From NCBI RefSeq assembly GCF_000620845.1, contig NZ_KK211189.1, forward strand, positions 64,501-128,500: a stretch of DNA of 64,000 nt, given 5' to 3'. Positions 20,185-37,078 of this stretch are shown in pieces. Under the pieces are notes generated by a model. The model searched no databases. It worked only from the letters and a program-made list of their open reading frames with translations, and was not told the origin of the DNA. The stretch comes from Exiguobacterium marinum DSM 16307 (GTDB lineage: Bacteria; Bacillota; Bacilli; Exiguobacteriales; Exiguobacteriaceae). Positions within the stretch are counted from its first letter, which is position 1; each line of letters begins with the position of its first letter. The translations under genes were made by a program, and so were the position numbers.

Positions 20185-20187
20185 ACT

Positions 20188-20502
20188 TTATGCGTTCGAC
20201 TGAGGACTCGGATACTTCACTGCGTTTTTCACGAGCTTGTCTTCAATCGCCTTTGACACATCGATGCCAGCAGCGTGAGCGAATGTCAACGCGTAAATCA
20301 ACACGTCAGCAAGCTCCTCTTCCATCTCCGTCTTTTTCGTCTCAAGCGCTTCTTCACTCGACACCCATTGGAATACCTCAAGGAGCTCACTCGCCTCGAG
20401 CGACAGGGAAAGTGCCAAGTCCTTCGGGTTATGATGAAACGCCCAATCACGCTCATTTCTGAATCTAATGACCTCATCCATTAATCGTTGTACTTCATTC
20501 AT
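20188..20502 (-). CDS. MazG-like nucleotide pyrophosphohydrolase
   Basis: A 104-residue all-alpha NTP pyrophosphatase of the RS21-C6/dCTPase type. Metal-binding acidic motifs are visible: SLEASELLEVFQW (ExxE) and EEELADVLIYAL (ExxD). It hydrolyses non-canonical or excess nucleoside triphosphates to monophosphates, a housecleaning role. Length is normal. It is separated from the DUF1878 gene by 15 bases, so probably one operon. Confidence 0.88.
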   Translation of the reverse strand: MNEVQRLMDEVIRFRNERDWAFHHNPKDLALSLSLEASELLEVFQWVSSEEALETKKTEMEEELADVLIYALTFAHAAGIDVSKAIEDKLVKNAVKYPSPQSNA

Positions 20503-20517
20503 ACATGCACGTCCTCA

Positions 20518-20892
20518 CTATTTATATTTAATCATGTTACCCACAGTAAAAACTCCACGTTTTACATACTCTTGAATCAATCGAACGGAAACCTCTTCTG
20601 ATAACTCCTCTAATTCAAGCACTAGTTTCAATTCTTCATGAAATGAAGCGAACGTCGGTATTTTGTTTTCAAACTTATACGCCTTCTCGAGTCGAATCAG
20701 AAAAAATGAAACATCATGTCTCTTTCCGACTGGTAGGTCATGTTTTAATAAGACGTACTCTAATTCAGTTTTCACCTGATTATGTAGTATTGAATCTTGC
20801 TCAATCACTCGAAATAGAAGGGATTGAAGCATTTCAACTTGAGATTCTAACTCGAACATGCGTGTTTGCATCTCTTCGAATTGCTTATCCAT
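20518..20892 (-). CDS. DUF1878 family protein (YhaI-like)
   Basis: A 124-residue acidic, helical protein. An N-terminal coiled coil (EEMQTRMFELESQVEMLQSL) is followed by a conserved-looking body. It resembles DUF1878/YhaI of Bacillus, whose function is unknown. No membrane segment or catalytic motif is visible. It lies directly upstream of the MazG-like gene. Confidence 0.65.
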   Translation of the reverse strand: MDKQFEEMQTRMFELESQVEMLQSLLFRVIEQDSILHNQVKTELEYVLLKHDLPVGKRHDVSFFLIRLEKAYKFENKIPTFASFHEELKLVLELEELSEEVSVRLIQEYVKRGVFTVGNMIKYK

Positions 20893-21028
20893 TAAATAGA
20901 GTCACTTCCCTTCACTAATTCGTCATGCATCCTATTTTACCAAAAGATGTAACTTCCATGTGTAATCATCTTCCTCTTAAGCCCTTCTCTGTAAAATGTT
21001 ATACTCCAACTAAAAAGGGAGGGATTCG

Positions 21029-22009
21029 ATGCTTACTTTCCAAAACGTCTCGGTTCGCCAACAAGACACACTCATTCTCGAAAACATTTCATTTACGATT
21101 CAACCAGGTGAGTTGGCGGCTATCCACTGTGGCGTCATTTCCCGAGAAATAATCTTCGGTCTCATCAGTCAGGAGATTACGACATTTACCGGGAACATCG
21201 ACCACGCTTCAACGCTGTCCCTCTTCTCCATCCGGGACGGTTTATACGACCGACTCACCATCGAGGAGTATTTACGCTTCACCAAGCGTCTTTATGATTC
21301 ATCCGAATCAGTCGACTCGGTGATGCAACAGCTCCAACTCACAACTTATCGTAAGCAACGCCTTCACCGTCTCAACCGTTCCCTTGTCAGACGCACGCAG
21401 TATGCCGCGCTGCTTCTCCAGAATCGCGAGCTGTATGTGTTTGAAGAACCGGACCAAGACGTGGACCAAGAGACACACCACCTTTTACGCGATACGTTAC
21501 AGACATTGACGTCGAGACAAAAAGCCGTCCTCGTGTTGACGAGCAATATGGAGAGTGCGCTCTTCATGACATCGACCGTTTATCGGATCGACCATCGTCA
21601 CTTACGCCAATTAGACGTGGAACCAGAAGAAACGGATGAGACAGACATCTCATCTGAGGTCATCCACGTCCGTTTCGAGAAGATTCCGACGAAAGTGAAC
21701 GAAAAAATCATCTTACTCGATCCCCCTGAAATCGACTTCATCGAAAGTCAAGATGGCCAATCGATTTTACATAGTCAATCGGATCAGTTCCCGAGTGTCT
21801 TCACGATGAACGAGCTCGAGACGCGTTTGACTCCGTACGGTTTCTTCCGTTGCCATCGGTCATATCTCGTGAACTTACAACGTGTCCGCGAAGTCATCAC
21901 TTATACGAAAAATAGCTTCAGTCTCGTCTTGGATGATTCAGAGAAGACAATGATTCCGTTATCCAAGACAAAAATGGCGGAATTGAAGACGATGATGGGG
22001 CTCAAATAG
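21029..22009 (+). CDS. Transcriptional regulator: degenerate ABC ATPase fused to a LytTR DNA-binding domain
   Basis: A 326-residue two-domain protein. Residues 1-210 fold like an ABC ATPase (LTFQNVSVRQQDTLILENIS at the start, YVFEEPDQDVD at the Walker B position). The Walker A position reads AAIHCGVISREI and lacks the GxxGxGK[ST] lysine, and the LSGGQ signature is replaced by LNRSLVRRTQ, so it should not hydrolyse ATP. Residues 225-326 are a clear LytTR domain (IDFIESQDGQ, FFRCHRSYLVNLQRV). It is followed by an ABC-2 transporter operon it probably controls. Confidence 0.85.
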   Translation: MLTFQNVSVRQQDTLILENISFTIQPGELAAIHCGVISREIIFGLISQEITTFTGNIDHASTLSLFSIRDGLYDRLTIEEYLRFTKRLYDSSESVDSVMQQLQLTTYRKQRLHRLNRSLVRRTQYAALLLQNRELYVFEEPDQDVDQETHHLLRDTLQTLTSRQKAVLVLTSNMESALFMTSTVYRIDHRHLRQLDVEPEETDETDISSEVIHVRFEKIPTKVNEKIILLDPPEIDFIESQDGQSILHSQSDQFPSVFTMNELETRLTPYGFFRCHRSYLVNLQRVREVITYTKNSFSLVLDDSEKTMIPLSKTKMAELKTMMGLK

Positions 22010-22139
22010 TCTCCATTCATAGTTCCATTCGCTTCGTTCACCTCCTGATAAGCGCCGTTTATCGCCATTTGAATGCGGTCCCCCTTTATTCCTTATACGA
22101 TAGAGGCAAGCAAGATGACATCGACAAGGAGGAACGGGA

Positions 22140-22988
22140 ATGGAACCAATCATTCAAGTGAACGGGTTGAAGAAATTGTTCGGAAACGAGGAAGCGTTAC
22201 ATGATGTGACGTTTACAGTTGGAAAAGGAGAAGTGTTCGGCTTCTTGGGACCGAGTGGTTCAGGAAAGACGACGACGATTAAAATTTTGACGTCACAGCT
22301 CGCACAGACGGCTGGCGATGCCACTGTCTTCGGTGTACCGGTCGCTGACTTAAAACAAGAACAGTACCGCAAGCGCATCGGCGTGTTGACGGACAATAGT
22401 GGTCTCTATACACGACTTTCTATAGAAGAGAACCTGAGCTTATATTGTGACCTCTATGATGAACCGAAGACTCGGATCGATGAGGTATTGAACATGGTCA
22501 ACCTCAGCGGGGAACGGAAAAAGCGCATCGACAAACTCTCTAGAGGGATGTTGCAACGGGTGACGCTCGCACGCGCCCTTCTTCATGAGCCGGAACTCCT
22601 GTTTCTGGATGAACCGACATCGGCTCTCGATCCGGTCAACTCTCGACATATCTATAAAGGGATTGAGAGGTTGAAGGCTAACGGGACGACCATCTTTTTA
22701 ACGACACACGATATGCAGGAAGCCGAAGAGCTGTGTGACCGTGTCGCTTTCTTACATCAAGGGTCGATTCAACTGCTCGATGCACCGAACGTATTGCGCA
22801 GGAAATATGCGACGGGATCGATGCTTGTCGAATTGAACAACGGTCAGGCGCATGAAGTGACGCAAACCGACGAAGGCGCGGACTGGCTTCATAAACAGAT
22901 GCGTGCAAAAAATATTGCGTCGATCCACTCCAACGAGCCGACACTCGGCGACATCTTTATCGAAGTGACAGGGAGGAAATTATCATGA
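22140..22988 (+). CDS. ABC transporter ATP-binding protein
   Basis: A 282-residue ABC ATPase with all motifs: Walker A GPSGSGKTT (about 38-46), signature LSRGMLQRV (an LSGGQ variant), Walker B LLFLDEPTSALD, and the H-loop TTHDMQEAEEL. It is the ABC-2 exporter subunit working with the permease 22985-23692, with which it overlaps by ATGA. The degenerate ABC-LytTR regulator lies 130 bases upstream. Substrate unknown; such systems often export peptides, lipids or antibiotics. Confidence 0.9.
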   Translation: MEPIIQVNGLKKLFGNEEALHDVTFTVGKGEVFGFLGPSGSGKTTTIKILTSQLAQTAGDATVFGVPVADLKQEQYRKRIGVLTDNSGLYTRLSIEENLSLYCDLYDEPKTRIDEVLNMVNLSGERKKRIDKLSRGMLQRVTLARALLHEPELLFLDEPTSALDPVNSRHIYKGIERLKANGTTIFLTTHDMQEAEELCDRVAFLHQGSIQLLDAPNVLRRKYATGSMLVELNNGQAHEVTQTDEGADWLHKQMRAKNIASIHSNEPTLGDIFIEVTGRKLS

Positions 22989-23692
22989 CTTTTTCAATGA
23001 AACGCGCACACGCCATTTTCCAGAAAGACTATAAGGATTTGTCTCGAAACTTGTTCGTCTCATCGACCTTGATCATGCCACTCTTCTTCGCCGTCTTCTA
23101 TTCGCGAATCGGTGATGGTGGCGTCGATATCACGTACTTCGTCATCAACATCACGTTCAGTCTCGTCGCCATCTTCGTACAGTGCGCGTTGATTGCCGAA
23201 GAGAAAGAGAAGAACACGCTCCGCGGGCTCATGCTGTCCCCGGCGAGCACGCTCGACATCTTGCTCGGAAAGAGCGCTCTCACATTCGTGACGACGATGA
23301 TCCTCATCGTAGCCTCGTCATTTTTTATGGATTATGCCCCGCAAAATCTGGCTGTGATTGCCCTCGCGCTCATCGTCTCGACATTCTTTTATATCGGGAT
23401 TGGAACGATGTTCGGCTTGATGACGAAGACGGTCATGGAAGCTTCACTGATTGTCATGTTGCCGTTCTTTTTCTTCTCGTTCTCACCGATGTTGTTGCCA
23501 CTACAAGACCGTTTCGCCATCATCGGAGTGCTCGAGTATTTACCGAACGTGCTCTTGATTGATGTGGCCCACCAAGTGGAAGACGGTGCGAAATTCGGTG
23601 CAGTCGGGCTAGAGCTTGGGTTGCTCACTGCGTGGGCGCTTGCCGCATTCGCCGGTAGCGTTGTGATGTATAACCGAAAACAGACGGACTGA
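22985..23692 (+). CDS. ABC-2 family permease
   Basis: A 235-residue membrane protein with six predicted helices and the ABC-2 architecture: cytoplasmic N-terminus, the AEEKEKNTLRGLMLSPAS intracellular loop (about 75-92) and the YIGIGTMFGLMTKTVMEAS helix. It is translationally coupled to its ATPase. A nearly identical but dead copy lies at 29848-30551. Confidence 0.88.
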   Translation: MTFSMKRAHAIFQKDYKDLSRNLFVSSTLIMPLFFAVFYSRIGDGGVDITYFVINITFSLVAIFVQCALIAEEKEKNTLRGLMLSPASTLDILLGKSALTFVTTMILIVASSFFMDYAPQNLAVIALALIVSTFFYIGIGTMFGLMTKTVMEASLIVMLPFFFFSFSPMLLPLQDRFAIIGVLEYLPNVLLIDVAHQVEDGAKFGAVGLELGLLTAWALAAFAGSVVMYNRKQTD

Positions 23693-23694
23693 AA

Positions 23695-23725
23695 AAAGAA
23701 TCGCCTGAGAACGGGCGATTCTTTT
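23695..23725. terminator. Bidirectional terminator
   Basis: AAAAGAATCGCC pairs with GGCGATTCTTTT across an 8-base loop. It ends the ABC-2 operon on the plus strand and the VOC-gene operon on the minus strand. Confidence 0.88.
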
Positions 23726-23734
23726 CGTATACAC

Positions 23735-24256
23735 TCATTTATGTTCCGCCGGTGTCCAACGCTCCTGTTCACTCGACGCAGGGTAATCAATTCCATCCGG
23801 ATAGGCAATCAGCTCGATGAGCGATCCCCATGGTGCCTTCCCATATACACCTTGGTTATTCCCGTTATCTTCGACGCCGGCTAACGGGTGGGGTTTCGAC
23901 AACAACTGTCCACCCGCACGTTCAAAGCGCTGAGCTGCCTCTTGCATATCATCCACATAAATCGCGAAATGATGTAAACCGTACGATGAGATTCCTGTCG
24001 GTTCGGTTTCATTTACTCGCGCGACTTGAAACAATTCGATAGACGGTCCTGATTTGATTTGAAGCAGTCGCATATGGATGATTTGTTGTCCGTCTGGTAA
24101 GTCCAGTTGCTGCTCCGCCTCTTTCCCTTCCATCGGTTCGTCTTCTGGACGTTGCACGTCATAACAAATCTCAGCGTCGAACGCGTCCTTCAAAAAAGTA
24201 GTTGCCTCCTCAATAGAAGGCACCGTCATGCCGATGTGATCAATTCCTCTGTTCAT
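23735..24256 (-). CDS. VOC-family (glyoxalase-like) protein
   Basis: A 173-residue protein with two betaalphabetabetabeta modules. Metal-ligand type positions are visible in IDHIGMTV (His7) and LHHFAIYVDDMQEA, with a Glu in SLIELIAYP. Function could be isomerase, epimerase or dioxygenase; the methylmalonyl-CoA-epimerase-like pattern is suggestive only. It overlaps the oxidoreductase gene by 17 bases and is the last gene of the SorC-rpiA operon. Confidence 0.8.
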   Translation of the reverse strand: MNRGIDHIGMTVPSIEEATTFLKDAFDAEICYDVQRPEDEPMEGKEAEQQLDLPDGQQIIHMRLLQIKSGPSIELFQVARVNETEPTGISSYGLHHFAIYVDDMQEAAQRFERAGGQLLSKPHPLAGVEDNGNNQGVYGKAPWGSLIELIAYPDGIDYPASSEQERWTPAEHK

Positions 24257-25208
24257 GATGAGTCCCCTTCCATTGTTGACGGATCCGATCCATCCACGTC
24301 ATCACATCCCGTGAATAAAGTCGCGTCTCGTCAGCTTCACCAGAAATGACACGATGCACCGCGTCAATTTCATAGCGTAATGCCTGCTCCGTCTCCCCAA
24401 GCTGAACGGTCTCAACCGAGCCATCTTTCGTGTACGTGATGGTCGCCTCCGTTGCACGAGGAAACGAATTGACGGTAATGTACCCGTCTTCTCCAGCGAC
24501 TACTCCTTGCTTCGGTAACTTTGTACGCATCGCAAGGGTAATGTTCACCATTTGATTTGAGCCTGTTCGAAGGATGGTACTTGATTGTTCATCGACCCCG
24601 GTCTTATATGGTTTCATCGTCGTCAACACTTCCACTACTTCTTCGTCCAAGAAATTTCGAGCGAACGATAAGGCGTACGTCCCGATATCGAGCATCGCAC
24701 CCCCAGCCAATTCCGGATTGAAGAAACGGTTGGACGGATCATCTTCTTTATAACTGCCAAACGTCACATGAATCATATTGACTCGTCCGATTGCACCTGC
24801 CTGAACACGCCGTCTCAACTCTTCAAATAGCGGCATATGATAAATCGTCATCGCTTCGAGCACAACTACCCCTTGATCATCAGCCAGACGTTGAATGTTC
24901 TCGAGCTCTTCACTGTTTAGTGTGATGGCTTTTTCGCAAAGGACATGCTTTCCATGTGCGATGGCTTGTTCCATCATCGAATAGTGAAGATGATGAGGCG
25001 TCGCCACATAGACGATGTCGATGTCAGGTGAAGATAACATCTCATCTAACGTTTGATAGACCTTTTTTACACTATATTTTTGCGCAAATTGTTCGGCTTT
25101 TTCTACATCTCGTCCCCACACTCCGTAGGCAATACCATCTGATTGCGCGAGTGCTTGAGCGAATTCTGTCGCAATCGTACCTGGTCCAATGATTCCCCAT
25201 TGCTTCAT
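24240..25208 (-). CDS. Gfo/Idh/MocA-family oxidoreductase
   Basis: A 322-residue NAD(P)-dependent dehydrogenase. The Rossmann start is WGIIGPGTIATEFAQAL, followed by the conserved VYVATPHHLHY and the catalytic-lysine motif HVLCEKAITLN (EKP-like, with Ala for Pro). It probably oxidises or reduces a sugar, inositol or dihydrodiol. It overlaps rpiA by 4 bases (ATGA), so it belongs to a sugar-phosphate operon. Confidence 0.88.
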   Translation of the reverse strand: MKQWGIIGPGTIATEFAQALAQSDGIAYGVWGRDVEKAEQFAQKYSVKKVYQTLDEMLSSPDIDIVYVATPHHLHYSMMEQAIAHGKHVLCEKAITLNSEELENIQRLADDQGVVVLEAMTIYHMPLFEELRRRVQAGAIGRVNMIHVTFGSYKEDDPSNRFFNPELAGGAMLDIGTYALSFARNFLDEEVVEVLTTMKPYKTGVDEQSSTILRTGSNQMVNITLAMRTKLPKQGVVAGEDGYITVNSFPRATEATITYTKDGSVETVQLGETEQALRYEIDAVHRVISGEADETRLYSRDVMTWMDRIRQQWKGTHHEQRN

Positions 25209-25903
25209 TTCCCTTCCCCCGTTTCTGTTGAATAGACGACTGTATCGCGATGATCGTGATGCGATGCAACAATGACGTGCGTGACGACATCTGTGAACAA
25301 GGACGTATCAACCACGCCACGTACTTGAGATAACTGGTGGTTCACCTCAATTGGATCTTCAGACGGGTGGACGACCACATCGAGTAATCGGTTTCCGTTC
25401 ACGGTCACCAAGGCCCCGTCACTGTTCAAACTTTGACGAACTTGTAGAGATATTACCCATGGGAGTTCTCGGACTTTCTCGCTCACATAGGTGAATGCTT
25501 GTGGAAGAACTTCTAAGACAATTGGATGATCAAACGTCAATCGTTCAACAAATTTAGAGTCATCTACTAGTAATACATATCGCTTCGCCATCGTCGCGAT
25601 GAGTTTTTCTTCTGTATGAATCCCACCTCCGCTTTTTAAGGCGTGGTGTCGAGCATCGACTTGGTCACAACCGTCAAAGGCAAGGTCGATCATCGAGACA
25701 TCCCCTGTCTCGACAACCCGAATTCCTTTTTCCAAACAAGCGCGTCGTGTCACAAATGAAGGTGTCACGATAGTTACGTCCAGTTGATTCGCATGAATCC
25801 TATTGATGAGGTGTTGAATCGTACTGCCACCCCCAAGACCGATTGTCATCCCTGATTCAATCCAAGGGAGCGCGGCTTCCGCACACTTCTCTTTTACATC
25901 CAT
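25205..25903 (-). CDS. rpiA: Ribose-5-phosphate isomerase A
   Basis: A 232-residue RpiA that interconverts ribose 5-phosphate and ribulose 5-phosphate. Characteristic motifs are present: IGLGGGSTIQHLI (phosphate loop), DLAFDGCDQVD with the active-site Asp, and LKSGGGIHTEEKLIA. It is encoded directly behind a SorC-type sugar regulator rather than alone, which suggests a catabolic, induced copy used for pentose or related sugar breakdown. Confidence 0.92.
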   Translation of the reverse strand: MDVKEKCAEAALPWIESGMTIGLGGGSTIQHLINRIHANQLDVTIVTPSFVTRRACLEKGIRVVETGDVSMIDLAFDGCDQVDARHHALKSGGGIHTEEKLIATMAKRYVLLVDDSKFVERLTFDHPIVLEVLPQAFTYVSEKVRELPWVISLQVRQSLNSDGALVTVNGNRLLDVVVHPSEDPIEVNHQLSQVRGVVDTSLFTDVVTHVIVASHHDHRDTVVYSTETGEGK

Positions 25904-25907
25904 TTGT

Positions 25908-26855
25908 TCATTCTCCCTGTAACAGTTTTTGGGCCGTGCGATCGGTTGTCACGATGACATCAAGTAACTGATGCTCAGCGGCGACTCGAATCGCATCTAC
26001 TTTCTCACTTCCATAGGCTACCCCGATTTTAAGTGGGACCTTTGCGAGTTGTTGATGCTCGATATGGACCGTCCTGTCTGATAAGGACGTCGTCATGAGT
26101 TCCCCGTTTTGATTATAAAAATTCGAACAAATATCTCCCACAATTTGTAGGTCGTTCATTTCTTCGGTAAACGTTTGGCCATAGAAAGCCAACCAGTTGG
26201 ATTCCTGGTTCAGTTGGGCCGAACCGATTCCAAAGAGGGCGATGTTCATCCGCCCCCACAGCTCCACGACTTCTTGAGCATGTGTTGATTGCGTCAATGC
26301 TTGTTTGATGGCGGCATCCGGTAAAATTGCAGGAACATCGATTAGTTTCGAACGTCCACGCCATTTTCGTGAGGCGTCATACGCTAACGTGTTCGCATGG
26401 AAACGACTTTCGAGTTTTCCGTCCGGTCCACCGATGAGTGGCACACATTGGATACTTGAATACACTTCTTTCGGTTTGAGTGCTTCCACGACGGAAGCGA
26501 GTGCTGTCCCCCAAGAAAATCCAATCACATCGTTGTCGGTCACCACCGACTCGACATATGTTGCGCACGCTTCCCCCATACGCTGTAACGTTTCTTCACG
26601 TTGTTCTGATTTTTCGGGTACAAGGATGACATGTTTTAGACCAAACCGCTCTTTCAGTTGGACTGCCACGTCAATTGATTGAAAGCGATCATAATCGATT
26701 TGAAATTTCACAATCCCTAATTCCCGAATGCGTTTTAACATGCGGCTGATGGTTGCCCGATTGACATCGAGCGTCTCCGCAATCTCGTGTTGTGTTTGAT
26801 TCTGTTCGTAATACAAGTGCGCTACTTCATAAAGCCTTTTCAATTCTTCTGACAT
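25908..26855 (-). CDS. SorC-family sugar-responsive transcriptional regulator
   Basis: A 315-residue regulator. The N-terminal helix-turn-helix is NQTQHEIAETLDVNRATISR, and a SorC/DeoR-C effector domain follows (VIGFSWGTALASVVEAL, IQCVPLIGG), which binds phosphorylated sugars. It is the first gene of an operon with rpiA, a Gfo/Idh oxidoreductase and a VOC protein. An inverted repeat at 26869-26906 in front of it is the probable operator. Confidence 0.88.
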   Translation of the reverse strand: MSEELKRLYEVAHLYYEQNQTQHEIAETLDVNRATISRMLKRIRELGIVKFQIDYDRFQSIDVAVQLKERFGLKHVILVPEKSEQREETLQRMGEACATYVESVVTDNDVIGFSWGTALASVVEALKPKEVYSSIQCVPLIGGPDGKLESRFHANTLAYDASRKWRGRSKLIDVPAILPDAAIKQALTQSTHAQEVVELWGRMNIALFGIGSAQLNQESNWLAFYGQTFTEEMNDLQIVGDICSNFYNQNGELMTTSLSDRTVHIEHQQLAKVPLKIGVAYGSEKVDAIRVAAEHQLLDVIVTTDRTAQKLLQGE

Positions 26856-26868
26856 TCAGTCACACCCT

Positions 26869-26906
26869 TTTGCACAAATGTACAATTAAATGAACAATTG
26901 TGCAAA
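26869..26906. promoter_or_regulatory. Probable SorC operator upstream of the rpiA operon
   Basis: TTTGCACAA (26869-26877) and its inverse TTGTGCAAA (26898-26906) flank a 20-base AT-rich core that itself holds TGTACA-like sequence. SorC-type regulators bind inverted repeats of this size upstream of their own gene. The site is within 15 bases of the regulator's start codon. Confidence 0.7.
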
Positions 26907-26932
26907 TTAGGATATGCTTTACTTGATAAAAC

Positions 26933-26962
26933 TGAAAAGAGCGACGAATTAACTCGTCGCTC
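26933..26962 (-). terminator. Terminator of the 27007-27429 gene
   Basis: On the minus strand GAGCGACGA and TCGTCGCTC pair around GTTAAT and are followed by TTTTCAGTTTT. It separates the defence island from the SorC operon promoter. Confidence 0.75.
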
Positions 26963-27006
26963 CTGCTTTTCTTATATACTTCGTACTCCAATCAGACTTT
27001 CAAAAA

Positions 27007-27429
27007 TCAGTCTTTTTTCGTCAGCAAATTAGTAAGTGTTTTTCTCACTTCTGGATTCTTTGCTAATGCTAATGCGGCACCACTGACTCCTGCTACAATC
27101 GATGCTCCCATCCATTTCTTGAACTCCGAATCTTTTTGAAATGACTTATCTACCATGCGTTCAATACGATCATTGAGTTTGTCTCTATTTTCATCCGATA
27201 GGTTGTCTTCTTTAAGTTGCTCAGCAAAGACCTCAATCGCTTTATCAATTGTACCGTACACTTTATCTTGCGATTTTGAACCGACTCCCCCCATGTTGCT
27301 AACGGCATTTATGACGTCTGGGGTATGCTTTAACATCATTTCATATTGTTTGAAAGGGATGTCATTCATATCCTGTTCATCTCCCATAAGCTGTTTTGCA
27401 GATTGAACAATTTCTCCTTTTTCACTCAT
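27007..27429 (-). CDS. Unknown protein downstream of Argonaute
   Basis: A 140-residue, charged, helical protein with one short Ala/Gly-rich hydrophobic segment near the C-terminus (GASIVAGVSGAALALA). I recognise no family. It is on the same strand as, and 111 bases after, the Argonaute gene, with no convincing terminator between them, so co-transcription is possible. The ATG at 27429 follows AGGAGGTAGAGTG; a second in-frame ATG is one codon upstream. Confidence 0.65.
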   Translation of the reverse strand: MSEKGEIVQSAKQLMGDEQDMNDIPFKQYEMMLKHTPDVINAVSNMGGVGSKSQDKVYGTIDKAIEVFAEQLKEDNLSDENRDKLNDRIERMVDKSFQKDSEFKKWMGASIVAGVSGAALALAKNPEVRKTLTNLLTKKD

Positions 27430-27540
27430 CACTCTACCTCCTAGTATGATCTCAATTCAAAGTTACGGTACGCATCGGTCCCAATATTCGACAAGAGGCG
27501 ATACTGAAAAAAACGGTATGATACCTTTCAATTTTACATG

Positions 27541-29646
27541 TTATACAAACGGCAATGCCTCTTCATGTTCTGTATTTGCATTGAGTAAGCCGCGATTATG
27601 GAACGTCGAACTTAAATCTGCATAATGCGTTGTGATTGGCAGTCTTGTTTTCAATAGCGAGTGGACGTGCATAAACGATAAGCGATAGACGTCCGTCAAA
27701 ATAGCTTCAAACGGCAATGTGCTCGTCTGTTGAACCACTTTGAGAGGCTTAGCCATTCCGACACGCACATGAGGATTCGTCGAGAGGAGATAACCCATGC
27801 GCTCTTTTGTATAGCTGAGTCCCTGTGAAGTTTTCCACCCTTTTTCATGAATCGCCATCCGTCGATTCACATTTTTCAAAATTTCCACATAGTCGAATTG
27901 AATCTCACGCGGAGATAGAATTGAATCAATAAGAGTCAAATCTTCACGCCCAAATCCATCTCGATGGAACGTGATATGCTTCGGCGCATGTCCGTACTGT
28001 TCTTCAAATGCATGTAATGTATCATAGACAATTTCCCGCATCGTCTCAGAACTGATTTTCTCCCCCGCTTCACTTGTCGAGAGTGCTTTCTGCTTGATCA
28101 TCGCCCCGTCTTTCCCAATGATTTGAATGATGCCTGCTGCATGTTTACCATTCTCATGACTTACGTCTAATCCGACAAAACAATCCGAATGGAGTGGCTC
28201 ACCAAGAATCCAAGGTTGTAGACCTGCCTTCACGTAAATACCCAGTAGAATGTTGTATAGCGTGTCCTCAGAATTCAATACACGGTCATGTAACTCGACG
28301 CATTGCGTCACCACATCCTGTTTCCCGCCAAATTGCCTTTTGATGGCTTGATATGAATGTTGGAGCGATGCTTCCTCGGCAATGACAACGACGACACCCT
28401 CAAAGTGTTGAGGGATACTCTTCAGTTGGTATAGAACATCTTCTGTCTGCAACAAATCAGAAGGTAGTTTCTGGCTCAATCCTTTTGGTTTATGCGAGAC
28501 ATTGAGGGTCACCCCAAAGCGCTCAGAGGTAGTTTTTAGTTTATTGATAAACTCTAGGACTTGCAGTTTTTGATGATCTCGTAATTTCGGGTCGACAAAG
28601 AAACTGACGGTCGCCTCTCCTGTTTCATATACACCACTTTGCTTTAAGCCAGTTTTTGCATAACTCGTGGTCCTCCCTTTACCGAATCGGAGACGTGGCG
28701 AAGGCAACGTTTGAATTGAGTAACCAAGACGAGCTGCTCGTACATCTTGTCGCTCAAACTGAAGCATTGGGAGACGACCAATTAACGCGAGCGCTTCCGG
28801 CATAAGTTTCGACATGCGTGCGTCAGGTGACAATTTGATGATGCGACTGACTGCACCGAGATGTCTAGCTGGAATCGTCTCAAAGGAACAACTCTGTTTC
28901 AGTTGCTCAGGTAAGTAGATAAGGATCTGATTGTTTCGATCTTTGACGTGTACGACGAGAGCGTCTGGTGCTATGACTCGTTTCGGGTCTTTCTTTGCGA
29001 AATAATCAATGATCGAACACTTCATAATCGGGCTCACTTCATTCGCTCGGTATGGTGCGACCTCTACAAATTCGTACTCATACGATTTCGGGTGAGTCGA
29101 ATCGATGACGCGCATCCCTGCAGATACGGATTTCGGATCACGCTTAATCTGCTGCAATAAGTTTTCACGGTATTCAAATTGATGAGTCAAATCGAATCCG
29201 AATACAATTTCAGCCGTCTCAGATACATTCACATTGAGATCTAATGCCGGATAAATGAGAAGCCCACTTGTAGACTTTGGATGCGCCTGTTTCGAGCGGA
29301 ACTTTCCACGGTTCATCATGTAACTCGGATGAGCCAATCGCTCCAACTGTTTTTTCAACAGACGTTCAAGTAATGTTCGCTCGACATTCCGTGATGGACT
29401 GATCGGACGCGCTTCATATTGAAGAAACGTCTCGTCTCCCCATTGTTTGATTTCCTCAAATGAAGCAATGTATTGATCGAAAAACACCATCGGTTGAAAA
29501 TTGTTCAATTTATTCAAGTGAAAAATCAACTTCCCACCCTGCGTATTTCGTGATGATGGATCTTTGAGCGGTACGGTATAGAGATGGAGTGTCACTTCCG
29601 TTGCTGTCGTTAACGCTCGCCATTCTGTTAAATAACATTGGTTCAT
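27541..29646 (-). CDS. Long prokaryotic Argonaute with an intact catalytic tetrad
   Basis: A 701-residue full-length pAgo (N, PAZ, MID, PIWI layout). The PIWI tetrad is complete: Asp494 (FVGLDVSH), Glu529 (EAGEKISSE), Asp563 (TFHRDGFG) and Asp677 (HYADLSST), i.e. DEDD, so it should cleave targets. The MID pocket has Tyr432, Lys436, Gln448 and Lys473, the Y-K-Q-K set that binds a 5'-phosphorylated guide in long-A Argonautes. It acts in the cytoplasm against plasmid or phage DNA with a short nucleic-acid guide. I recall a studied homologue in Exiguobacterium marinum, but cannot confirm identity here. Confidence 0.93.
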   Translation of the reverse strand: MNQCYLTEWRALTTATEVTLHLYTVPLKDPSSRNTQGGKLIFHLNKLNNFQPMVFFDQYIASFEEIKQWGDETFLQYEARPISPSRNVERTLLERLLKKQLERLAHPSYMMNRGKFRSKQAHPKSTSGLLIYPALDLNVNVSETAEIVFGFDLTHQFEYRENLLQQIKRDPKSVSAGMRVIDSTHPKSYEYEFVEVAPYRANEVSPIMKCSIIDYFAKKDPKRVIAPDALVVHVKDRNNQILIYLPEQLKQSCSFETIPARHLGAVSRIIKLSPDARMSKLMPEALALIGRLPMLQFERQDVRAARLGYSIQTLPSPRLRFGKGRTTSYAKTGLKQSGVYETGEATVSFFVDPKLRDHQKLQVLEFINKLKTTSERFGVTLNVSHKPKGLSQKLPSDLLQTEDVLYQLKSIPQHFEGVVVVIAEEASLQHSYQAIKRQFGGKQDVVTQCVELHDRVLNSEDTLYNILLGIYVKAGLQPWILGEPLHSDCFVGLDVSHENGKHAAGIIQIIGKDGAMIKQKALSTSEAGEKISSETMREIVYDTLHAFEEQYGHAPKHITFHRDGFGREDLTLIDSILSPREIQFDYVEILKNVNRRMAIHEKGWKTSQGLSYTKERMGYLLSTNPHVRVGMAKPLKVVQQTSTLPFEAILTDVYRLSFMHVHSLLKTRLPITTHYADLSSTFHNRGLLNANTEHEEALPFV

Positions 29647-29847
29647 CTTTAGCTCATCCTTCCCCGTTGTTCAATTCTTGCATCCACTATAACGGATTTC
29701 CTAATATTAGGTAGATAAAATAACGAATAGGGTTCAAATGAGAAGTTTACTTATGAGATAGAGATTCTCTAGGAAGATTTATGTGGAGTGTTATAAGGGC
29801 GGAAGCGGCTGAATTGAAGCAAAGAAAAGACGGGAGAAAAATTATCA

Positions 29848-30551
29848 TGACATTTTCAAAGCGGGCATTCGCAATTTTTCAGAAAGACTATAAAGACTTG
29901 TCGCGTAACGTATTCGTCTCCTCGACGTTGATTATGCCGCTGTTCTTCGCCGTCTTCTATTTACAGCTCAGCGGAGGAGGCATCGACGTGACGTACTTCG
30001 TTATCAATATCACGTTCAGTCTCGTGGCGACGTTCATTTAGTGTGCCTTGATTGCCGAAGAGAAAGAGAAGAACATGCTCCGTGGGTTGATGTTGTCGTC
30101 GGCGAGCACGCTTGACATCTTGTTCGGGAAGAGTGCACTCACGTTCGTAACGACACTCGTTTTGATTGCAGCGTGCGCCTTCATCATGGGATACAGTCCG
30201 GCGAACCTGTTTGTTGTCTCACTCGCTTTAATCGTCTCGACGTTCTTTTATATCGGGATTGGGACGATTCTCGGATTGATGACGAAGACGGTCATGGAAG
30301 CTTCGCTCATCGTCATGCCGGCGTTTTTCTTCTTCTCGTTTTCTCCAATGTGGTCGGTGTACGAGGAACGGTTCGCCATCATCGGTTTGCTCGAGTACTT
30401 GCCGAACATCGTCTTAATCGACCTTGCTCATCAAATCGAGGCGGGAGCTGGACTCGCCTCTACATGGGTGGAGCTCGTTATTCTGTTGGCCTAGGTGCTC
30501 GTTGTGTTCGTTGGAAGTATAATGATGTATAACCGGAAACAGACGGATTGA
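29848..30551 (+). pseudogene. Decayed copy of the ABC-2 permease gene
   Basis: The translated product matches the permease of 22985-23692 along its whole length (FQKDYKDLSRN, AEEKEKN.LRGLML, VMEASLIVM, MMYNRKQTD). Two in-frame TAG codons interrupt it: at 30039-30041 in place of a CAG (Gln), and at 30492-30494 in place of a TGG (Trp). Each is explained by one base change. The 40 bases before the ATG resemble the end of the ATPase gene, so the original duplication covered both genes and the ATPase is lost. Confidence 0.9.
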
Positions 30552-30554
30552 TTG

Positions 30555-30595
30555 AAACCAGGTGTCATCTTGACTTGAAAGACGACACCTGGTTT
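30555..30595. terminator. Terminator after the permease pseudogene
   Basis: AAACCAGGTGTC pairs with GACACCTGGTTT across a 17-base loop. It sits just past the TGA of the pseudogene, where the working copy also has a terminator. Confidence 0.7.
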
Positions 30596-30853
30596 ATCTT
30601 CAGTTGTTTTTATTAGGCTATAAAGTCTTCATCTTCATTACAGTCGGTCCAGTTACTTCGCTCTCATCGAGACGAAGAATCTGAACCAAATTTCATTCAG
30701 CATTCTTTTCTCACTGAGAATGACCTCAAAATAAGACTGTTAGTCCCCACTTTGATGTAGCCATTCTCGTAGCAGCCTTATTTATTTAAATTTTTAGACG
30801 TTTTTGATTTCCAAGAGTGTCCCTTCCAAAACGACTCGCCTCTTGATTTGGGA
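30596..30853. other. AT-rich non-coding stretch
   Basis: No open frame, RNA gene or repeat is recognised here. It lies between the permease pseudogene and the 3' end of herA, and marks the transition from the normal base composition to the AT-rich SIR2-HerA segment. It may hold remnants too decayed to read. Confidence 0.5.
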
Positions 30854-30880
30854 GTAAAAAAGCCTTCACAATGGAAGGCT
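30854..30880 (-). terminator. Terminator of the SIR2-herA operon
   Basis: On the minus strand AGCCTTCC and GAAGGCT pair around ATTGT and are followed by six T. It lies about 85 bases after the herA stop. Confidence 0.75.
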
Positions 30881-30964
30881 CAGTGAAAAATATCCTGTTG
30901 TCTTTAAGTTGTTTGATTCAGAGTCTCATTTGAATAGCTGATAAACACAATTAGTGTTTTCTGT

Positions 30965-32125
30965 TCACACATCTACTCGTGACTGCGCTCTCATGTTTCT
31001 AATCGCTTTATTTAATTCTTCGGCTTGAGGCTCTAGCTTATTCCAAGCTTTCCAAAAATCGATAGTATTGCTATTCGGTTTTAAAATAGGTTCGGCTAAT
31101 TTAATTCGGTTAGGCAATAAAATTGAGTCTCCTAGGACTAATGCCTCACCTACATCTAAAATTGGTAAGCAATCTGTTACTCCTTTTAAAGAGTCTGGAA
31201 TTAAATTTTTTATGACACCTTGATCACGTTCATTTGTAAGGCGTAAAATAATGAAGTTATTACATTGACTCAAAATTGTTTTGCTGACGTCAGATGGTCT
31301 TTGACTTACGACAAAAAGAGAAACACCGTATTTGCGTCCTTCCTTTGCTATTCTTTCAAAATTAAATAGTGCTTGTTTTTGAACTGAGTCAGCATTATCT
31401 TTTACAGGTAGGTATAGATGGGCTTCATCGCACAGTAATGTAAACGGAGTTCTTTCAGTGCTGTCCATCCAAAACTGTACATCATAAAATATTCTAGCAA
31501 GCGTGCCTGTCACTACAGGTAATATATCAGAAGGCACTTCAGAAAAATCGATAATTTTTATACCCTTGCCACTTGAATTAATTGACAGCATTTTTGCAAT
31601 AAAAGTGTTCAACCAACCATACTCATTACACTCTTCTTTAGGATTGTATAAAAATGAATATCTTTTATCCTCTACCTTAGTTTCTAAACGTGATATGAAT
31701 CGCGTAAGTTTACCATTCCAATCACCTTTAACCGGTTTACTAGCCCCCGGTTTCATTTGAATATCATCTTGACGGAGAAGATCAATCAGCTCATTTATCG
31801 AGTATGGAATAGGAGAATCTACTGTAAAGGACTTCATTACCTCTTCGTCATTTTGCTTAAGTATACTAGCCAATTTCAAGTCTTTTAAATGCGATGTAAA
31901 TCTAGAAGATTGGTTTGGAGCATTGTTGTCACTTCTATCTAGTACAGTGGAAAGAATTTCTTCTCTATTGAGTAACCAAAAAGGCAAATATATCAGTTGA
32001 TTTTCAGCAATATCTAAATCTCCCGCACCTGCAATTTTGTAGCCTTCTGCAATTCTATTCTCTCCTTTTGTAAGTGAAGAATATTCTCCATGCATGTCAA
32101 AAACAATTATGTTTGGATATTTCAA
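30965..32125 (-). CDS. herA: HerA-like helicase, C-terminal fragment (Walker B onward)
   Basis: A 386-residue frame starting at a TTG that overlaps the TGA of the N-terminal fragment. It begins KYPNIIVFDMHGEYSSL, the HerA/FtsK-type Walker B region, and contains the later conserved parts: LLCDEAHLYLP (second acidic motif) and SLFVVSQRPSDVSKTIL (sensor/arginine region). In intact HerA proteins this directly continues the frame that holds Walker A. One extra T (AATTGAAA to AATTTGAAA at about 32124) would join them into a protein of about 580 residues. Confidence 0.85.
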   Translation of the reverse strand: MKYPNIIVFDMHGEYSSLTKGENRIAEGYKIAGAGDLDIAENQLIYLPFWLLNREEILSTVLDRSDNNAPNQSSRFTSHLKDLKLASILKQNDEEVMKSFTVDSPIPYSINELIDLLRQDDIQMKPGASKPVKGDWNGKLTRFISRLETKVEDKRYSFLYNPKEECNEYGWLNTFIAKMLSINSSGKGIKIIDFSEVPSDILPVVTGTLARIFYDVQFWMDSTERTPFTLLCDEAHLYLPVKDNADSVQKQALFNFERIAKEGRKYGVSLFVVSQRPSDVSKTILSQCNNFIILRLTNERDQGVIKNLIPDSLKGVTDCLPILDVGEALVLGDSILLPNRIKLAEPILKPNSNTIDFWKAWNKLEPQAEELNKAIRNMRAQSRVDV

Positions 32126-32709
32126 TTCGCTAGCTTTTCAAGAATAGTAGCCACGCACCAGCTTTTACCAGAACCCGTACTACCTAAAACGCTGACATGC
32201 CTTTGGAAAAGTTTATCCCCATCTAAAATAGCCTCTGAATTAGTATCATTTGCAAAATGTCCAATTTTTAGTTTTTGATTATCTTTAACCTTATCACCTA
32301 AATTATTCATAAATCTTTGTAAATTATCTCCATTAACTAAAAAACATTCACTGTCTATGCTTGGAAAGAGATCGACACCTCTTTTAAAAATATTTCGCTT
32401 AGTCCCATCCACACTTTTAAATGTTCCAATTAAACTTGCTTTAATTAAATCGTTTGTATTAAGTTCTACATCCTCATCTTCGTCTTCGTCTTCTGTAGTC
32501 ATTATATCTAGTTGTGAACGTGTGACTTTTTCAACTAAACATATTAACAATTCATGTTCATAATTACCTCTTACTGCAATTATGTGCCCTATGCTCAACC
32601 TGCTCATAATTTGAGAATTATCAACACTTATAATTACATTAGATGTATCCACACTCATCACTTTCCCTATCAATACATCATCTGTAAAATTAAATACTTT
32701 AGTTACCAT
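32122..32709 (-). CDS. herA: HerA-like helicase, N-terminal fragment (Walker A, frameshifted)
   Basis: A 195-residue frame. It holds the N-terminal HerA beta-barrel (about 1-130) and, at its end, Walker A GSTGSGKS (176-183) followed by WCVATILEKLAN and a stop. Without the second fragment it has no Walker B and cannot be a full ATPase. Its ATG directly follows the SIR2 stop (TAAATG), showing the classical SIR2-HerA operon. The stop could be a sequencing error, an inactivating mutation, or a reversible switch; re-initiation at the overlapping TTG is possible but the ribosome site there is weak. Confidence 0.85.
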   Translation of the reverse strand: MVTKVFNFTDDVLIGKVMSVDTSNVIISVDNSQIMSRLSIGHIIAVRGNYEHELLICLVEKVTRSQLDIMTTEDEDEDEDVELNTNDLIKASLIGTFKSVDGTKRNIFKRGVDLFPSIDSECFLVNGDNLQRFMNNLGDKVKDNQKLKIGHFANDTNSEAILDGDKLFQRHVSVLGSTGSGKSWCVATILEKLAN

Positions 32710-33777
32710 TTAAAATACCACCTCTGTCATAGTTTTGATATCCCATAAGTCTAGATCGTGTATTCTATAGATATTGTTTTTATATATAATCTCAGTTCCA
32801 ATCTTAGAATCGGACTCCTGATAGTGATAACATGCAATCACATTCTCTTTATCCTTGATAAGGGATTGACTGCTTTCACTTAAAAACTTTGTAAGAATTA
32901 GTGTTGGAGTTCCTTCGCGTATTCTCTGTTTTAAGTGTGTCTCTAAATGTTCGTCATTAAAGCCATATCCTACTATTAAAAATTTCGAAGCTCTATCAAT
33001 AACATTATTGGCTTTGTCTCTATGGGTATCAAAAGGTGTTTCATAGCCATTTCTAAATTTGTTTACTCCGGGTGTTATAATTAGCCGTTCTAATTCAAGA
33101 TCAAAGGTTGAGTTTATTGGGTTTCCTTTGTAAAGATACCAATTTAAACAACCATGCGGCTTATAAATGGAAACCTTTTTGTTAAAAATCATTTTAGGAG
33201 GTTTTCTTGTATTATCAATTTTTTCGCAAAAACTCATTCTGCTTTTTTTAGAATCTAAACGTGCAATATATTTTCCATAAAATAAATTGTCAATGGGGAT
33301 ATTTTCTACTTCGCAAGCAATTTCAAGTAATCTATCGTAATTTGTGCATACTATTTTTAATCCTGCATCTGTAATATTAAATTTTTTTATTAGTGTAGAA
33401 AAACGTAATTCCTGTTCACCTTTAATCACTTTTTCAATTACTTTTTGTTCTTCTCTTTTTATGTAATCTGCAGTCACTTTTCTAATTATCGTCTCTACTT
33501 CTAAATCAGGCGGATATTTTAATAATGTTGCTTCTAAATTGGCATGTTCCTTGACACTACCATCTTGGTGGGTTAAATCTTCCTTAATTTTAAGCCATTG
33601 TTTATTATTTTGATCATTCAGTTGTTCAGGTACTTTTTCAACTAACTTTTCTGCTAGTTTCCACATGCCAGGTAAACCTTCTGCACATGACAATCCTGAT
33701 CCAATTACCAAAACTGTATCAGCGCCAAAATATGACTGTATATCCCTAAACAAATTATCCTTTTCGGCTTCCTCCAT
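32710..33777 (-). CDS. SIR2-domain NADase of a SIR2-HerA defence system
   Basis: A 355-residue protein with the SIR2 fold: the NAD loop VLVIGSGLS (about 22-30), TNYD with Asn146 and Asp148, and the catalytic-type His208 (YKPHGCLNW). In SIR2-HerA systems SIR2 and HerA form a large complex that depletes NAD+ on phage infection. The C-terminal part (VGYGFNDEHLETHL) resembles other anti-phage SIR2 proteins. Base composition is much more AT-rich than the flanks, so it was probably acquired. AGGGGGGGA precedes the ATG. Confidence 0.9.
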   Translation of the reverse strand: MEEAEKDNLFRDIQSYFGADTVLVIGSGLSCAEGLPGMWKLAEKLVEKVPEQLNDQNNKQWLKIKEDLTHQDGSVKEHANLEATLLKYPPDLEVETIIRKVTADYIKREEQKVIEKVIKGEQELRFSTLIKKFNITDAGLKIVCTNYDRLLEIACEVENIPIDNLFYGKYIARLDSKKSRMSFCEKIDNTRKPPKMIFNKKVSIYKPHGCLNWYLYKGNPINSTFDLELERLIITPGVNKFRNGYETPFDTHRDKANNVIDRASKFLIVGYGFNDEHLETHLKQRIREGTPTLILTKFLSESSQSLIKDKENVIACYHYQESDSKIGTEIIYKNNIYRIHDLDLWDIKTMTEVVF

Positions 33778-33928
33778 TTAGTCCCCCCCTAACTTTCTGT
33801 TAAGTAAAGATTAAAAATATAGTTTATATAAATTGTAGGAAAATAAATTAAAGTCGATTGAACCTAGTGTATTAATTATATCATGGAGAAATTAACATTA
33901 AAAACCATTTCATCTCAAAGAAATAACC

Positions 33929-33966
33929 AAAAAAAGAGAAGCCTGCTTAAGGCTTCTCTTAAAAAA
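33929..33966 (-). terminator. Terminator of groESL
   Basis: On the minus strand AAGAGAAGCC and GGCTTCTCTT pair around TTAAGCA, followed by a run of T. It lies just after the groEL stop codon at 33976. Confidence 0.85.
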
Positions 33967-33975
33967 TCATTTGTA

Positions 33976-35622
<1,647 letters not shown>

Positions 35623-35658
35623 TCATTTCCCCCTAAAAAAGTTTTTGAATAATGGTGC

Positions 35659-35943
35659 TTAGCCTACGATTGCGAGAATGTCGCTCTCGCGAACGATTAA
35701 GTACTCTTTTCCATCATGCTTCACTTCGGTACCTGCGTACTTCGAGTAGATGACCAAATCATTTTCTTTCACGTCGAGATCGATGCGCTTGCCTTCGTCC
35801 GTCACGCGGCCTGTACCGACTGCGACGACTTTCCCTTGTTGCGGCTTTTCTTTCGCCGTATCAGGAAGCACGATGCCCCCGATCGTCTTTTCTTCTTTCT
35901 CCACGACTTCGATGATGACACGATCGCCTAGTGGTTTTAACAT
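35659..35943 (-). CDS. groES: Co-chaperonin GroES
   Basis: A 94-residue GroES, the lid of the GroEL chamber. It begins [19 protein letters not shown], has the mobile loop [16 protein letters not shown] (about 22-37) and ends [11 protein letters not shown]. It is the first gene of the operon; GGAGGG lies before the ATG. Confidence 0.98.
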
Positions 35944-35992
35944 GTAAAAACCCTCCTCCGAATATGAATGATGTAATGTGTATCGTAAGGTT

Positions 35993-36056
35993 TTAGCACT
36001 CAGTTAAAAGGAGTGCTAACATTGATAAGTGTAGTATGCGACGATTAAAAAATCAA
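35993..36056 (-). promoter_or_regulatory. CIRCE operator and sigma-A promoter of groESL
   Basis: A perfect CIRCE, TTAGCACTC-N9-GAGTGCTAA, occupies 35993-36019; it is the HrcA repressor site. On the minus strand the promoter reads TTGATT (36051-36056), a 17-base spacer, and TACACT (36028-36033). The CIRCE lies just downstream, around the start point. No hrcA gene is in the window. Confidence 0.95.
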
Positions 36057-36156
36057 GTACGATACATTAAAAAATGCTCTTACTCGCGGTCAAGAGAACT
36101 TATTTGTTACAATGAGAAAAAGGTAGGTTCATTCTTATGATTAAGGACGTGTTGAA

Positions 36157-36852
36157 TTGGCTACACTAAACTCAAACCAATCGATAAATACCCGTTTTTC
36201 GATGGCGCCTAACATTCGTCTCCGGCACCTCACCCCGATTTTACTATATGCGTTCGTTCAACTATTCCCGCTCGTCCTCACTGAAGTACGACCGGAATGG
36301 TTAACGGAAACGTTCGTCGGGCTCTGGCTCGCCATCGGATTCGGTGTGACGATTGTTCTGTCAATCCTGCTCATCTGGCCGGATTTGAAGCAATACAAAG
36401 CGCAAGGCATCCAATCGAACTTGAACGACACGGTCAAATGGATCGGGCTCGGGATTTTGATGCAATACGGGCTCGTCATCGTGGCGAACTTGATTGAGAC
36501 GGCCATCTCTGGTGACCTCGTCGAATCGATGAACACGCAAAACATTGCCGAGATGGTGGAAGTCATTCCACTCCTGATTTTGCCGGTTATTTTGCTCGGA
36601 CCAATCATCGAAGAGATTCTCTTCCGTCACATTTTGTTCGGGAACTTGAATGCACGCTTCGGGTTCTGGATCGCCTTTGGGGTCAGTTCGATCCTATTCG
36701 CGCTCATCCACCAAGATAATCGATTCCTCGTCTATATCGCGATGAGTTTCGCGTTCTCATATGCGTATGCGAAGACAAGACGATTGATCGTTCCAATCGC
36801 CATCCACGCGTTCAACAACGCGCTCGTGATGCTCGTACTATTTTTAATGTAG
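36157..36852 (+). CDS. CPBP-family intramembrane metalloprotease (YdiL-like)
   Basis: A 231-residue, multi-helix membrane protein with the Abi/CAAX protease motifs: PIIEEILFRHILFGN (EExxxR) and FALIHQD (FxxxH). It lies next to groESL, as ydiL does in Bacillus subtilis. TTG start, with AAGGA 9 bases upstream. Members cleave prenylated or bacteriocin-related peptides, but its substrate is unknown. Confidence 0.88.
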   Translation: MATLNSNQSINTRFSMAPNIRLRHLTPILLYAFVQLFPLVLTEVRPEWLTETFVGLWLAIGFGVTIVLSILLIWPDLKQYKAQGIQSNLNDTVKWIGLGILMQYGLVIVANLIETAISGDLVESMNTQNIAEMVEVIPLLILPVILLGPIIEEILFRHILFGNLNARFGFWIAFGVSSILFALIHQDNRFLVYIAMSFAFSYAYAKTRRLIVPIAIHAFNNALVMLVLFLM

Positions 36853-36868
36853 AAATGAGGTGGCAGTT

Positions 36869-37078
36869 ATGCCGCGACAACTAAAAGTGATGATGCTCTT
36901 CAGTCTCTCGTTCGGTGTGTTGTTCACCGTCCTCGCGTACTTCTCGGTACAAGAGTACGGCTTCAGCTTCTGGACGTACTTTATCATCGCCGTCGCCGCT
37001 TATGACTTTTTCAAAGTGTATCAAATCTTGGCACTCGCTCGAAAAGTCAAAAAAGAAGGCACGGACAAATCCGCATAA
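36869..37078 (+). CDS. YdiK-like small membrane protein (DUF4305)
   Basis: A 69-residue protein with two transmembrane segments (about residues 9-27 and 34-55) and a lysine-rich tail. ATG at 36869 with GAGG 8 bases upstream; the GTG at 36860 is less well placed. It follows the CPBP gene by 16 bases, matching the ydiL/ydiK neighbourhood near groESL in Bacillus. Function unknown. Confidence 0.72.
   Translation: MPRQLKVMMLFSLSFGVLFTVLAYFSVQEYGFSFWTYFIIAVAAYDFFKVYQILALARKVKKEGTDKSA

What the first reader, a model, noticed from the sequence alone, without database searches (positions are those of the whole stretch)
27541..29646. Catalytically complete long Argonaute in an Exiguobacterium-like genome
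All four PIWI residues (Asp494, Glu529, Asp563, Asp677) and the Y-K-Q-K guide-phosphate pocket (432, 436, 448, 473) are present. It is therefore a predicted active nuclease, not a short or dead pAgo. I recall that an Exiguobacterium Argonaute has been studied, but this locus has its own neighbours (an unknown helical protein downstream and SIR2-HerA upstream) that may not have been examined.
Basis: partly seen in the sequence, partly recalled or inferred. Interest (0 to 1): 0.75.

Follow-up and report, generated by a model that had tools for sequence, protein, structure and literature searches.

The report
Ordinary active Argonaute in Exiguobacterium
This is a full-length bacterial Argonaute, a DNA-cutting defence enzyme of a kind already purified from this genus, sitting as a self-contained gene in a region where defence genes pile up; it is real but ordinary.

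Summary
Window 27541-29646, minus strand, encodes a 701-aa long prokaryotic Argonaute with a DEDD tetrad (D494, E529, D563, D677) and a Y-K-Q-K guide pocket (432/436/448/473). All eight residues are invariant in 14 aligned Argonautes. Selection is purifying (dN/dS 0.07-0.13 in 10 of 10 pairs of five Exiguobacterium orthologs). The nearest solved relative is KmAgo.

It is not new: EmaAgo (E. marinum) and EsAgo (Exiguobacterium sp. AB2) are in print, though I could not compare sequences.

The neighbours do not look like partners. The SIR2 gene occurs in 1 of 19 genus genomes and the HerA is frame-split. The small helical protein lies beside 3 of 5 Argonautes and survives as a fragment in a genome without one. 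In two carriers with other flanks, only the gene plus about 112 bp upstream is conserved.

Best reading: a stand-alone guided-nuclease gene with its own 5' region, in a groEL-adjacent defence hotspot. A decaying permease gene of the other Exiguobacterium clade lies just upstream, probably a scar of import. Nuclease activity was not tested here.

The parts
27541..29646 (-). Long-A-type Argonaute, 701 aa; D494/E529/D563/D677 and Y432/K436/Q448/K473
29647..29758 (-). Conserved 5' region of the Argonaute (about 112 bp; ribosome-binding site and a 12-bp palindrome at 29700-29711). Homology to the two Argonautes with other flanks ends at 29758
27007..27432 (-). 141-aa orphan ORF (GTG start), predicted all-helical by a low-confidence model, with a C-terminal hydrophobic stretch (about residues 106-125); adjacent, probably not an obligate partner
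29839..30551 (+). Decaying ABC-2 permease gene of the other Exiguobacterium clade (ORF fragments 29781-30041 and 30048-30494), probably a scar of import of the Argonaute block
22985..23692 (+). Intact resident ABC-2 permease, 74% identical in DNA to the scar; far edge of the hotspot
32710..33777 (-). SIR2 protein of a probable SIR2-HerA pair; in 1 of 19 genus genomes
30965..32709 (-). HerA ATPase split into two frames (195 + 386 aa) after the P-loop; probably inactivated here
33976..35943 (-). groEL-groES, near edge of the defence hotspot

Best explanation
A stand-alone, catalytically competent long-A prokaryotic Argonaute related to KmAgo, orthologous (inferred) to the Argonautes already described from this genus. 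Most likely it binds short 5'-phosphorylated guides (DNA probably, possibly RNA) in the MID pocket and cuts complementary plasmid or phage nucleic acid with its PIWI DEDD site. Guides may come from its own unguided chopping of invading DNA, as reported for EmaAgo. The gene with about 112 bp of 5' region is the unit kept in different surroundings, so it needs no fixed partner gene. Shown here: gene, residues, conservation, purifying selection, limits of the conserved unit, variable neighbours. Inferred from relatives: guide binding, cleavage, guide production, defence role.
For: Full-length pAgo profile match. KmAgo as best solved relative by phmmer and by profile. Eight active-site and pocket residues invariant in 14 of 14 aligned, down to 32% identity. 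dN/dS 0.07-0.13 in 10 of 10 ortholog pairs. Present in 5 of 19 genus genomes, the four others at 89-97% identity. In two of those four (G013, G014) the flanks differ, and homology is confined to 27541/27543-29758. No directly adjacent gene is shared beyond near relatives in 16 loci. A passage citing the EmaAgo work states DNA-guided DNA cleavage and guide-independent plasmid chopping.
Against: No activity data for this exact protein were found or made here. EmaAgo and EsAgo sequences could not be compared, and their primary papers are not held. The AlphaFold model was too poor to check geometry (mean pLDDT 38.7). No tree with named long-A and long-B references was built; placement rests on scores and residues. 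The gene is absent from 14 of 19 genus genomes, and three class relatives are broken or truncated.
Confidence: 0.88

Rival explanations
1. Two-gene system: the Argonaute works with the adjacent 141-aa helical protein, for example as a membrane-tethered helper or effector.
For: Same strand, 108 bp downstream, in 3 of 5 Argonaute carriers, all at the same site. Reading frame under selection, dN/dS 0.10-0.31 in 3 of 3 pairs. C-terminal hydrophobic segment, mean hydropathy 1.35 over 19 residues. Long-B pAgos with separate effectors are described (PMC10620215, search listing and start of abstract).
Against: Missing from 2 of 5 Argonaute genomes. A fragment of it with a stop stands next to the permease of G004, which has no Argonaute. 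Not found in 19 genomes of the other genus of the order, in viral contigs or in plasmids. The tetrad is intact, so no effector is needed. The three copies share one site, so they may count as one event.
Confidence: 0.07
2. SIR2-HerA and Argonaute form one composite system, like SIR2-coupled pAgos.
For: Same strand, HerA ending 1.3 kb upstream of the Argonaute start. The SIR2 ORF also gives weak matches to Ago-associated SIR2 profiles.
Against: SIR2 is in 1 of 19 genus genomes while Argonaute is in 5. Its best profile is a general PADLOC SIR2 model at 460.7 bits, against 37.2 for Aga_SIR2. HerA is frame-split. A foreign permease scar lies between HerA and Argonaute.
Confidence: 0.02
3. The Argonaute is a decaying passenger with no present function, kept only by recent arrival.
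For: Patchy in the genus (5 of 19). Three of the 20 matching class genomes hold broken or truncated copies (G257, G149, G375). The Argonaute dS to G016 (0.170) is a little below all seven other genes compared with that genome (0.196-0.306), which could mean later exchange.
Against: dN/dS 0.07-0.13 with synonymous divergence up to 0.83 and all motifs intact.
Confidence: 0.03

Closest known systems
EmaAgo (Exiguobacterium marinum DSM 16307, WP_026824436.1) and EsAgo (Exiguobacterium sp. AB2, WP_034806158.1)
   Same: Same genus. A search of 19 genus genomes with this protein found one Argonaute in each of 5, the four others 89-97% identical, so EmaAgo and EsAgo are very likely orthologs or the same protein (inference). 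EmaAgo is reported active in DNA-guided DNA cleavage and chopping (passage).
   Different: Sequences not compared; accession numbers seen only in PMC12564509. Neighbourhood of those strains not seen.
KmAgo (Kurthia massiliensis), PDB 8xhs
   Same: Best solved relative, aligned over nearly full length with tetrad and pocket conserved.
   Different: 36 residues shorter here (701 against 737), clearly diverged, aligned in two stretches; guide and target range unknown here.
Long-B pAgo-SIR2 systems and SIR2-HerA defence pairs
   Same: SIR2 and HerA genes are nearby.
   Different: Long-B pAgos lack the tetrad (PMC6299218, passage). Here the tetrad is complete, and the SIR2 lies next to a frame-broken HerA and is absent from the other four Argonaute genomes.

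Membership tests
Long-A prokaryotic Argonaute | Full-length N-L1-PAZ-L2-MID-PIWI protein | tested here: met
   PADLOC pAgo profile positions 1-697 of 697 covered; KmAgo aligned from residue 3 to 458 and 493 to 737. Judged by length and alignment, not by a structure
Long-A prokaryotic Argonaute | DEDX catalytic tetrad in PIWI | tested here: met
   D494, E529, D563, D677, invariant in 14 of 14 aligned; two of the columns read A in some solved Ago chains
Long-A prokaryotic Argonaute | 5'-phosphate guide pocket, YK type (Y, K, Q, K) | tested here: met
   Y432, K436, Q448, K473, invariant in 14 of 14; motif definition from PMC6299218 (passages)
Long-A prokaryotic Argonaute | Complete PAZ pocket for the guide 3' end | tested here: inconclusive
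   Region aligned to KmAgo, but the structure model was too poor (pLDDT 38.7)
Long-A prokaryotic Argonaute | Position inside the long-A clade of a pAgo tree | not tested
   Only scores: KmAgo far above, then C. perfringens Ago and 6qzk, then 3dlb (TtAgo) and 1yvu
Long-A prokaryotic Argonaute | Guided endonuclease activity | not testable with these tools
   Needs purified protein
Short pAgo | Only MID and PIWI, no catalytic tetrad | tested here: not met
   Full length with intact tetrad
Long-B pAgo with SIR2 effector | Missing tetrad and linked SIR2 gene | tested here: not met
   Tetrad present; SIR2 in 1 of 19 genomes against Argonaute in 5 of 19
Argonaute-PLD (APAP) system | Adjacent phospholipase D nuclease gene | tested here: not met
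   No PLD domain among the 10 window ORFs and 10 neighbour ORFs of related loci scanned with Pfam; not all neighbours were scanned
SIR2-HerA | Intact SIR2 plus intact HerA | tested here: not met
   SIR2 intact; HerA in two frames while 18 of 19 other HerA matches in the class have open frames of 534 aa or more. NCBIfam anti-phage SIR2 (30.1 of 500) and HerA (252.9 of 850, C-terminal piece) stay below cut-off

The most novel reading that the evidence does not exclude
The 141-aa orphan helical protein, with its possible C-terminal membrane anchor, is a dedicated partner of an active long-A Argonaute in one Exiguobacterium lineage (for example tethering it to the membrane where DNA enters). I saw no such partner in the passages read on pAgo neighbours; I made no dedicated literature search for it.
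Probability: 0.07. Interest if true: 0.5.

Novelty: already known. Interest (0 to 1): 0.2.

Why it matters
It indicates that the Exiguobacterium Argonaute is a self-contained defence gene and not part of a fixed multi-gene system, so the single gene with its own upstream region should suffice for testing. The permease scar gives a concrete picture of how a chromosomal defence hotspot may exchange cargo between clades of a genus together with a flanking gene.

Tried and rejected
SIR2-HerA as Argonaute partner: rejected by distribution. The 141-aa ORF as obligate partner: not supported. Conserved partner in other Bacilli: no gene directly next to the Argonaute was shared in 16 loci except between near relatives (ORFs of 70 aa or more; the window itself was not in that comparison). 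Scattered weak cross-matches further out were seen there: a type III restriction-like ORF (L004 and L095, 29% over 278 aa), a PadR-like ORF (L002 and L101), a 25% match (L003 and L095), cation ATPases, transporters and a transposase-like ORF (some of these names are my reading of the sequence, not a search result).

Structure: the Argonaute model had pLDDT 38.7 and the 141-aa protein 50.8; both were set aside and no fold search was run. Rfam: nothing in 20000-40000. Sigma-70 scan of 26800-29900: no excess over shuffles (6 found, mean 6.3). Viral contigs: none for either protein. Plasmids: none for the 141-aa ORF; 38 records with distant Agos, all under 60% identity. I tried to identify the species of the window genome from papers without success.

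For the 14-sequence alignment I left out 6 of the 20 matching class genomes: three broken or truncated (G257, G149, G375) and three with short weak matches (G225, G170, G372). PADLOC and Pfam were run on chosen neighbour ORFs, not on all. Of those chosen, some gave no PADLOC family: L060 199 aa and L066 217 aa, L070 532 aa, L002 409 aa.

Full report
What is there. The ORF at 27541-29646 lies on the minus strand and encodes 701 aa. It matches a full-length pAgo profile at 997 bits and the Pfam Piwi domain at E 1.7e-23. Its closest solved relative is KmAgo, 8xhs, E 1.7e-115. In an alignment of 14 Argonautes (five Exiguobacterium including the window, one Bacillus ectoiniformans, eight from unnamed Bacilli genomes) all eight residues are invariant. 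Chains of solved Agos carry alanine at the same columns: 9jh8 at the D563 column, and 6qzk at the D494 and D563 columns. That these are deliberate catalytic mutants is my inference.

Is it maintained? Five Exiguobacterium orthologs have dN/dS of 0.07-0.13 in all 10 pairs. Argonaute synonymous divergence from the window is 0.154 (G013), 0.170 (G016), 0.316 (G002) and 0.789 (G014; 0.795). Other genes compared gave 0.02-0.45 for G013 (five genes), 0.20-0.31 for G016 (seven genes), 0.21-0.40 for G002 (seven genes) and 0.44 for G014 (groEL only). So the Argonaute has diverged about as its surroundings have in G013 and G002. It is a little less diverged than all seven genes in G016, and more than groEL in G014.

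Distribution. The Argonaute is in 5 of 19 genus genomes, the window's included, and gives a match in 20 of 398 genomes of the class, a sample of a larger group. Of those 20, 14 are full length, three are broken or truncated and three are short weak matches. It was not found in viral contigs; on plasmids only distant Agos occur.

The unit. In G002 and G016 the Argonaute sits at the same place as in the window, followed by the 141-aa ORF and a SorC-type regulator. In G013 it lies in the same broad groEL-to-MazG stretch, but about 29 kb from groEL and with other flanks. In G014 it is on a separate 16-kb contig, so its place is unknown. In both it follows a 299-301-aa protein; the G013 copy has NucS_C and DUF5655 domains, and the two copies are 95% identical. 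DNA homology between the window and those two loci runs only from 29758 to the stop codon at 27541/27543, and the alignments of the two edges show this directly. The unit kept in different surroundings is therefore the gene with about 112 bp of 5' sequence. That region holds a good ribosome-binding site and a perfect 12-bp palindrome, which occurs once in the 2.81-Mb genome. The palindrome is exact in 4 of 5 orthologs, has one change in L003, and was not seen upstream of the nine more distant Argonautes examined. One such palindrome in a stretch this long is not very unlikely by chance, so I do not build on it.

The neighbours. The 141-aa ORF has no Pfam, PADLOC or NCBIfam match, and one PHROGs match at E 0.038. 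PDB sequences give nothing better than E 0.045. It is in 4 of 38 genomes of the order, all in this genus: three beside the Argonaute, and one as a fragment with a stop in G004, which has no Argonaute. In G004 the fragment and the sequence behind it lie directly against the permease 3' end. The reading frame is under selection in the three intact copies (dN/dS 0.10-0.31), so it is probably a real gene, but the link to Argonaute is weak. SIR2 is in 1 of 19 genomes. HerA is in two frames that change after the P-loop (the motif name is recalled), whereas 18 of 19 other HerA matches in the class have single open frames of 534 aa or more. The pair is probably inactive here, unless the frame change is a sequencing error. 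That the two genes form a SIR2-HerA pair rests on separate PADLOC SIR2 and HerA models and recall. NCBIfam's anti-phage SIR2 and HerA models stay below their cut-offs.

The hotspot and the scar. I looked at the DNA downstream of groEL in 18 genomes (17 fetched, plus the window; G011 had no groEL match). On the ORFs chosen for scanning, defence-type genes occur there in at least 10 of 18: SIR2-HerA (G000), HamAB (G016), methyltransferase with a ResIII helicase (G002), JetC (G013, G014, G006), type I restriction (G007; also G013), DRT4 (G018), PD-T4-6-like kinase (G015, G009). G005 has a LmuB-like protein at 119 bits. Upstream of the window's Argonaute, on the opposite strand, lies a second permease gene (29839-30551) broken into ORF fragments. 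It is 86.7-89.2% identical to nine permeases of the other Exiguobacterium clade and 74.2% to the resident permease at 22985-23692. A similar remnant stands upstream of the Argonaute in G016. In a FastTree of 15 permease sequences both remnants fall on the other clade's side of a branch with support 1.000.

One import or two? The two remnants differ by 15.5%, close to the Argonaute's synonymous distance between these genomes (0.170), and the homology between window and G016 runs unbroken across 24000-30589. Both fit one ancestral import of a block with permease and Argonaute, followed by decay of the permease. Against this, the tree does not join the two remnants: G016's groups with G004 (0.951) and the window's with G018 and G017 (0.280 and 0.870). 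Two imports or later exchange are therefore not excluded. That the permease and the Argonaute came in together is inferred from their being adjacent.

What is in print. A CalAgo paper lists EmaAgo (E. marinum DSM 16307) and EsAgo (Exiguobacterium sp. AB2) in its alignment (PMC12564509, passages). An mLife paper says EmaAgo performs DNA-guided DNA cleavage and guide-independent plasmid chopping (PMC11442185, passages). A 2026 Exiguobacterium genomics paper says EsAgo lies close to other defence systems in defence islands, and cites a paper titled on its random guide-independent DNA cleavage (PMC13233415, passages). The primary papers on EmaAgo and EsAgo are not held, and I did not see their text. 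Searches for EmaAgo and EsAgo found only these three papers. The definitions of tetrad, YK pocket and long-A/long-B come from passages of PMC6299218.

Verdict. The neighbourhood gives no good reason to expect a new system. The permease scar and the hotspot history are the parts I had not expected; I did not search the literature for them, and they are of modest interest.

Noticed in passing
window 30965-32709 (-): HerA next to SIR2 is split into 195- and 386-aa frames at about 32122-32125, after the P-loop; 18 of 19 other HerA matches in the class have an open frame of 534 aa or more.
   Followed up: partly
window 29839-30551 (+); L005 9100-9764: Decaying permease copies resembling the other Exiguobacterium clade upstream of the Argonaute in two genomes; G009 (L074 5092-5353) also carries an extra permease fragment besides its intact gene.
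   Followed up: partly
window 29700-29711: Perfect palindrome CCTAATATTAGG in the Argonaute 5' region, once in the whole genome, exact in 4 of 5 orthologs; possibly an operator, possibly chance.
   Followed up: partly
groEL-downstream stretches L059-L075 and window 27000-34000: Downstream of groEL at least 10 of 18 genomes examined hold defence-type genes, of different kinds (JetC, type I restriction, HamAB, DRT4, PD-T4-6-like kinase).
   Followed up: partly
L002 6713-9851; L064 7503-10564: A UvrD-like helicase followed by a NucS_C/DUF5655-type protein (PADLOC candidate PDC-S18 for the L002 copy) stands upstream of Argonaute in G013, and a similar pair without Argonaute in G003; G014 has only the second gene next to Argonaute.
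   Followed up: no
G257:C1:57399-59487; G149:C10:86752-88161; G375:C41:254115-256255: Broken or truncated Argonautes of the same family in other Bacilli, suggesting repeated loss.
   Followed up: no
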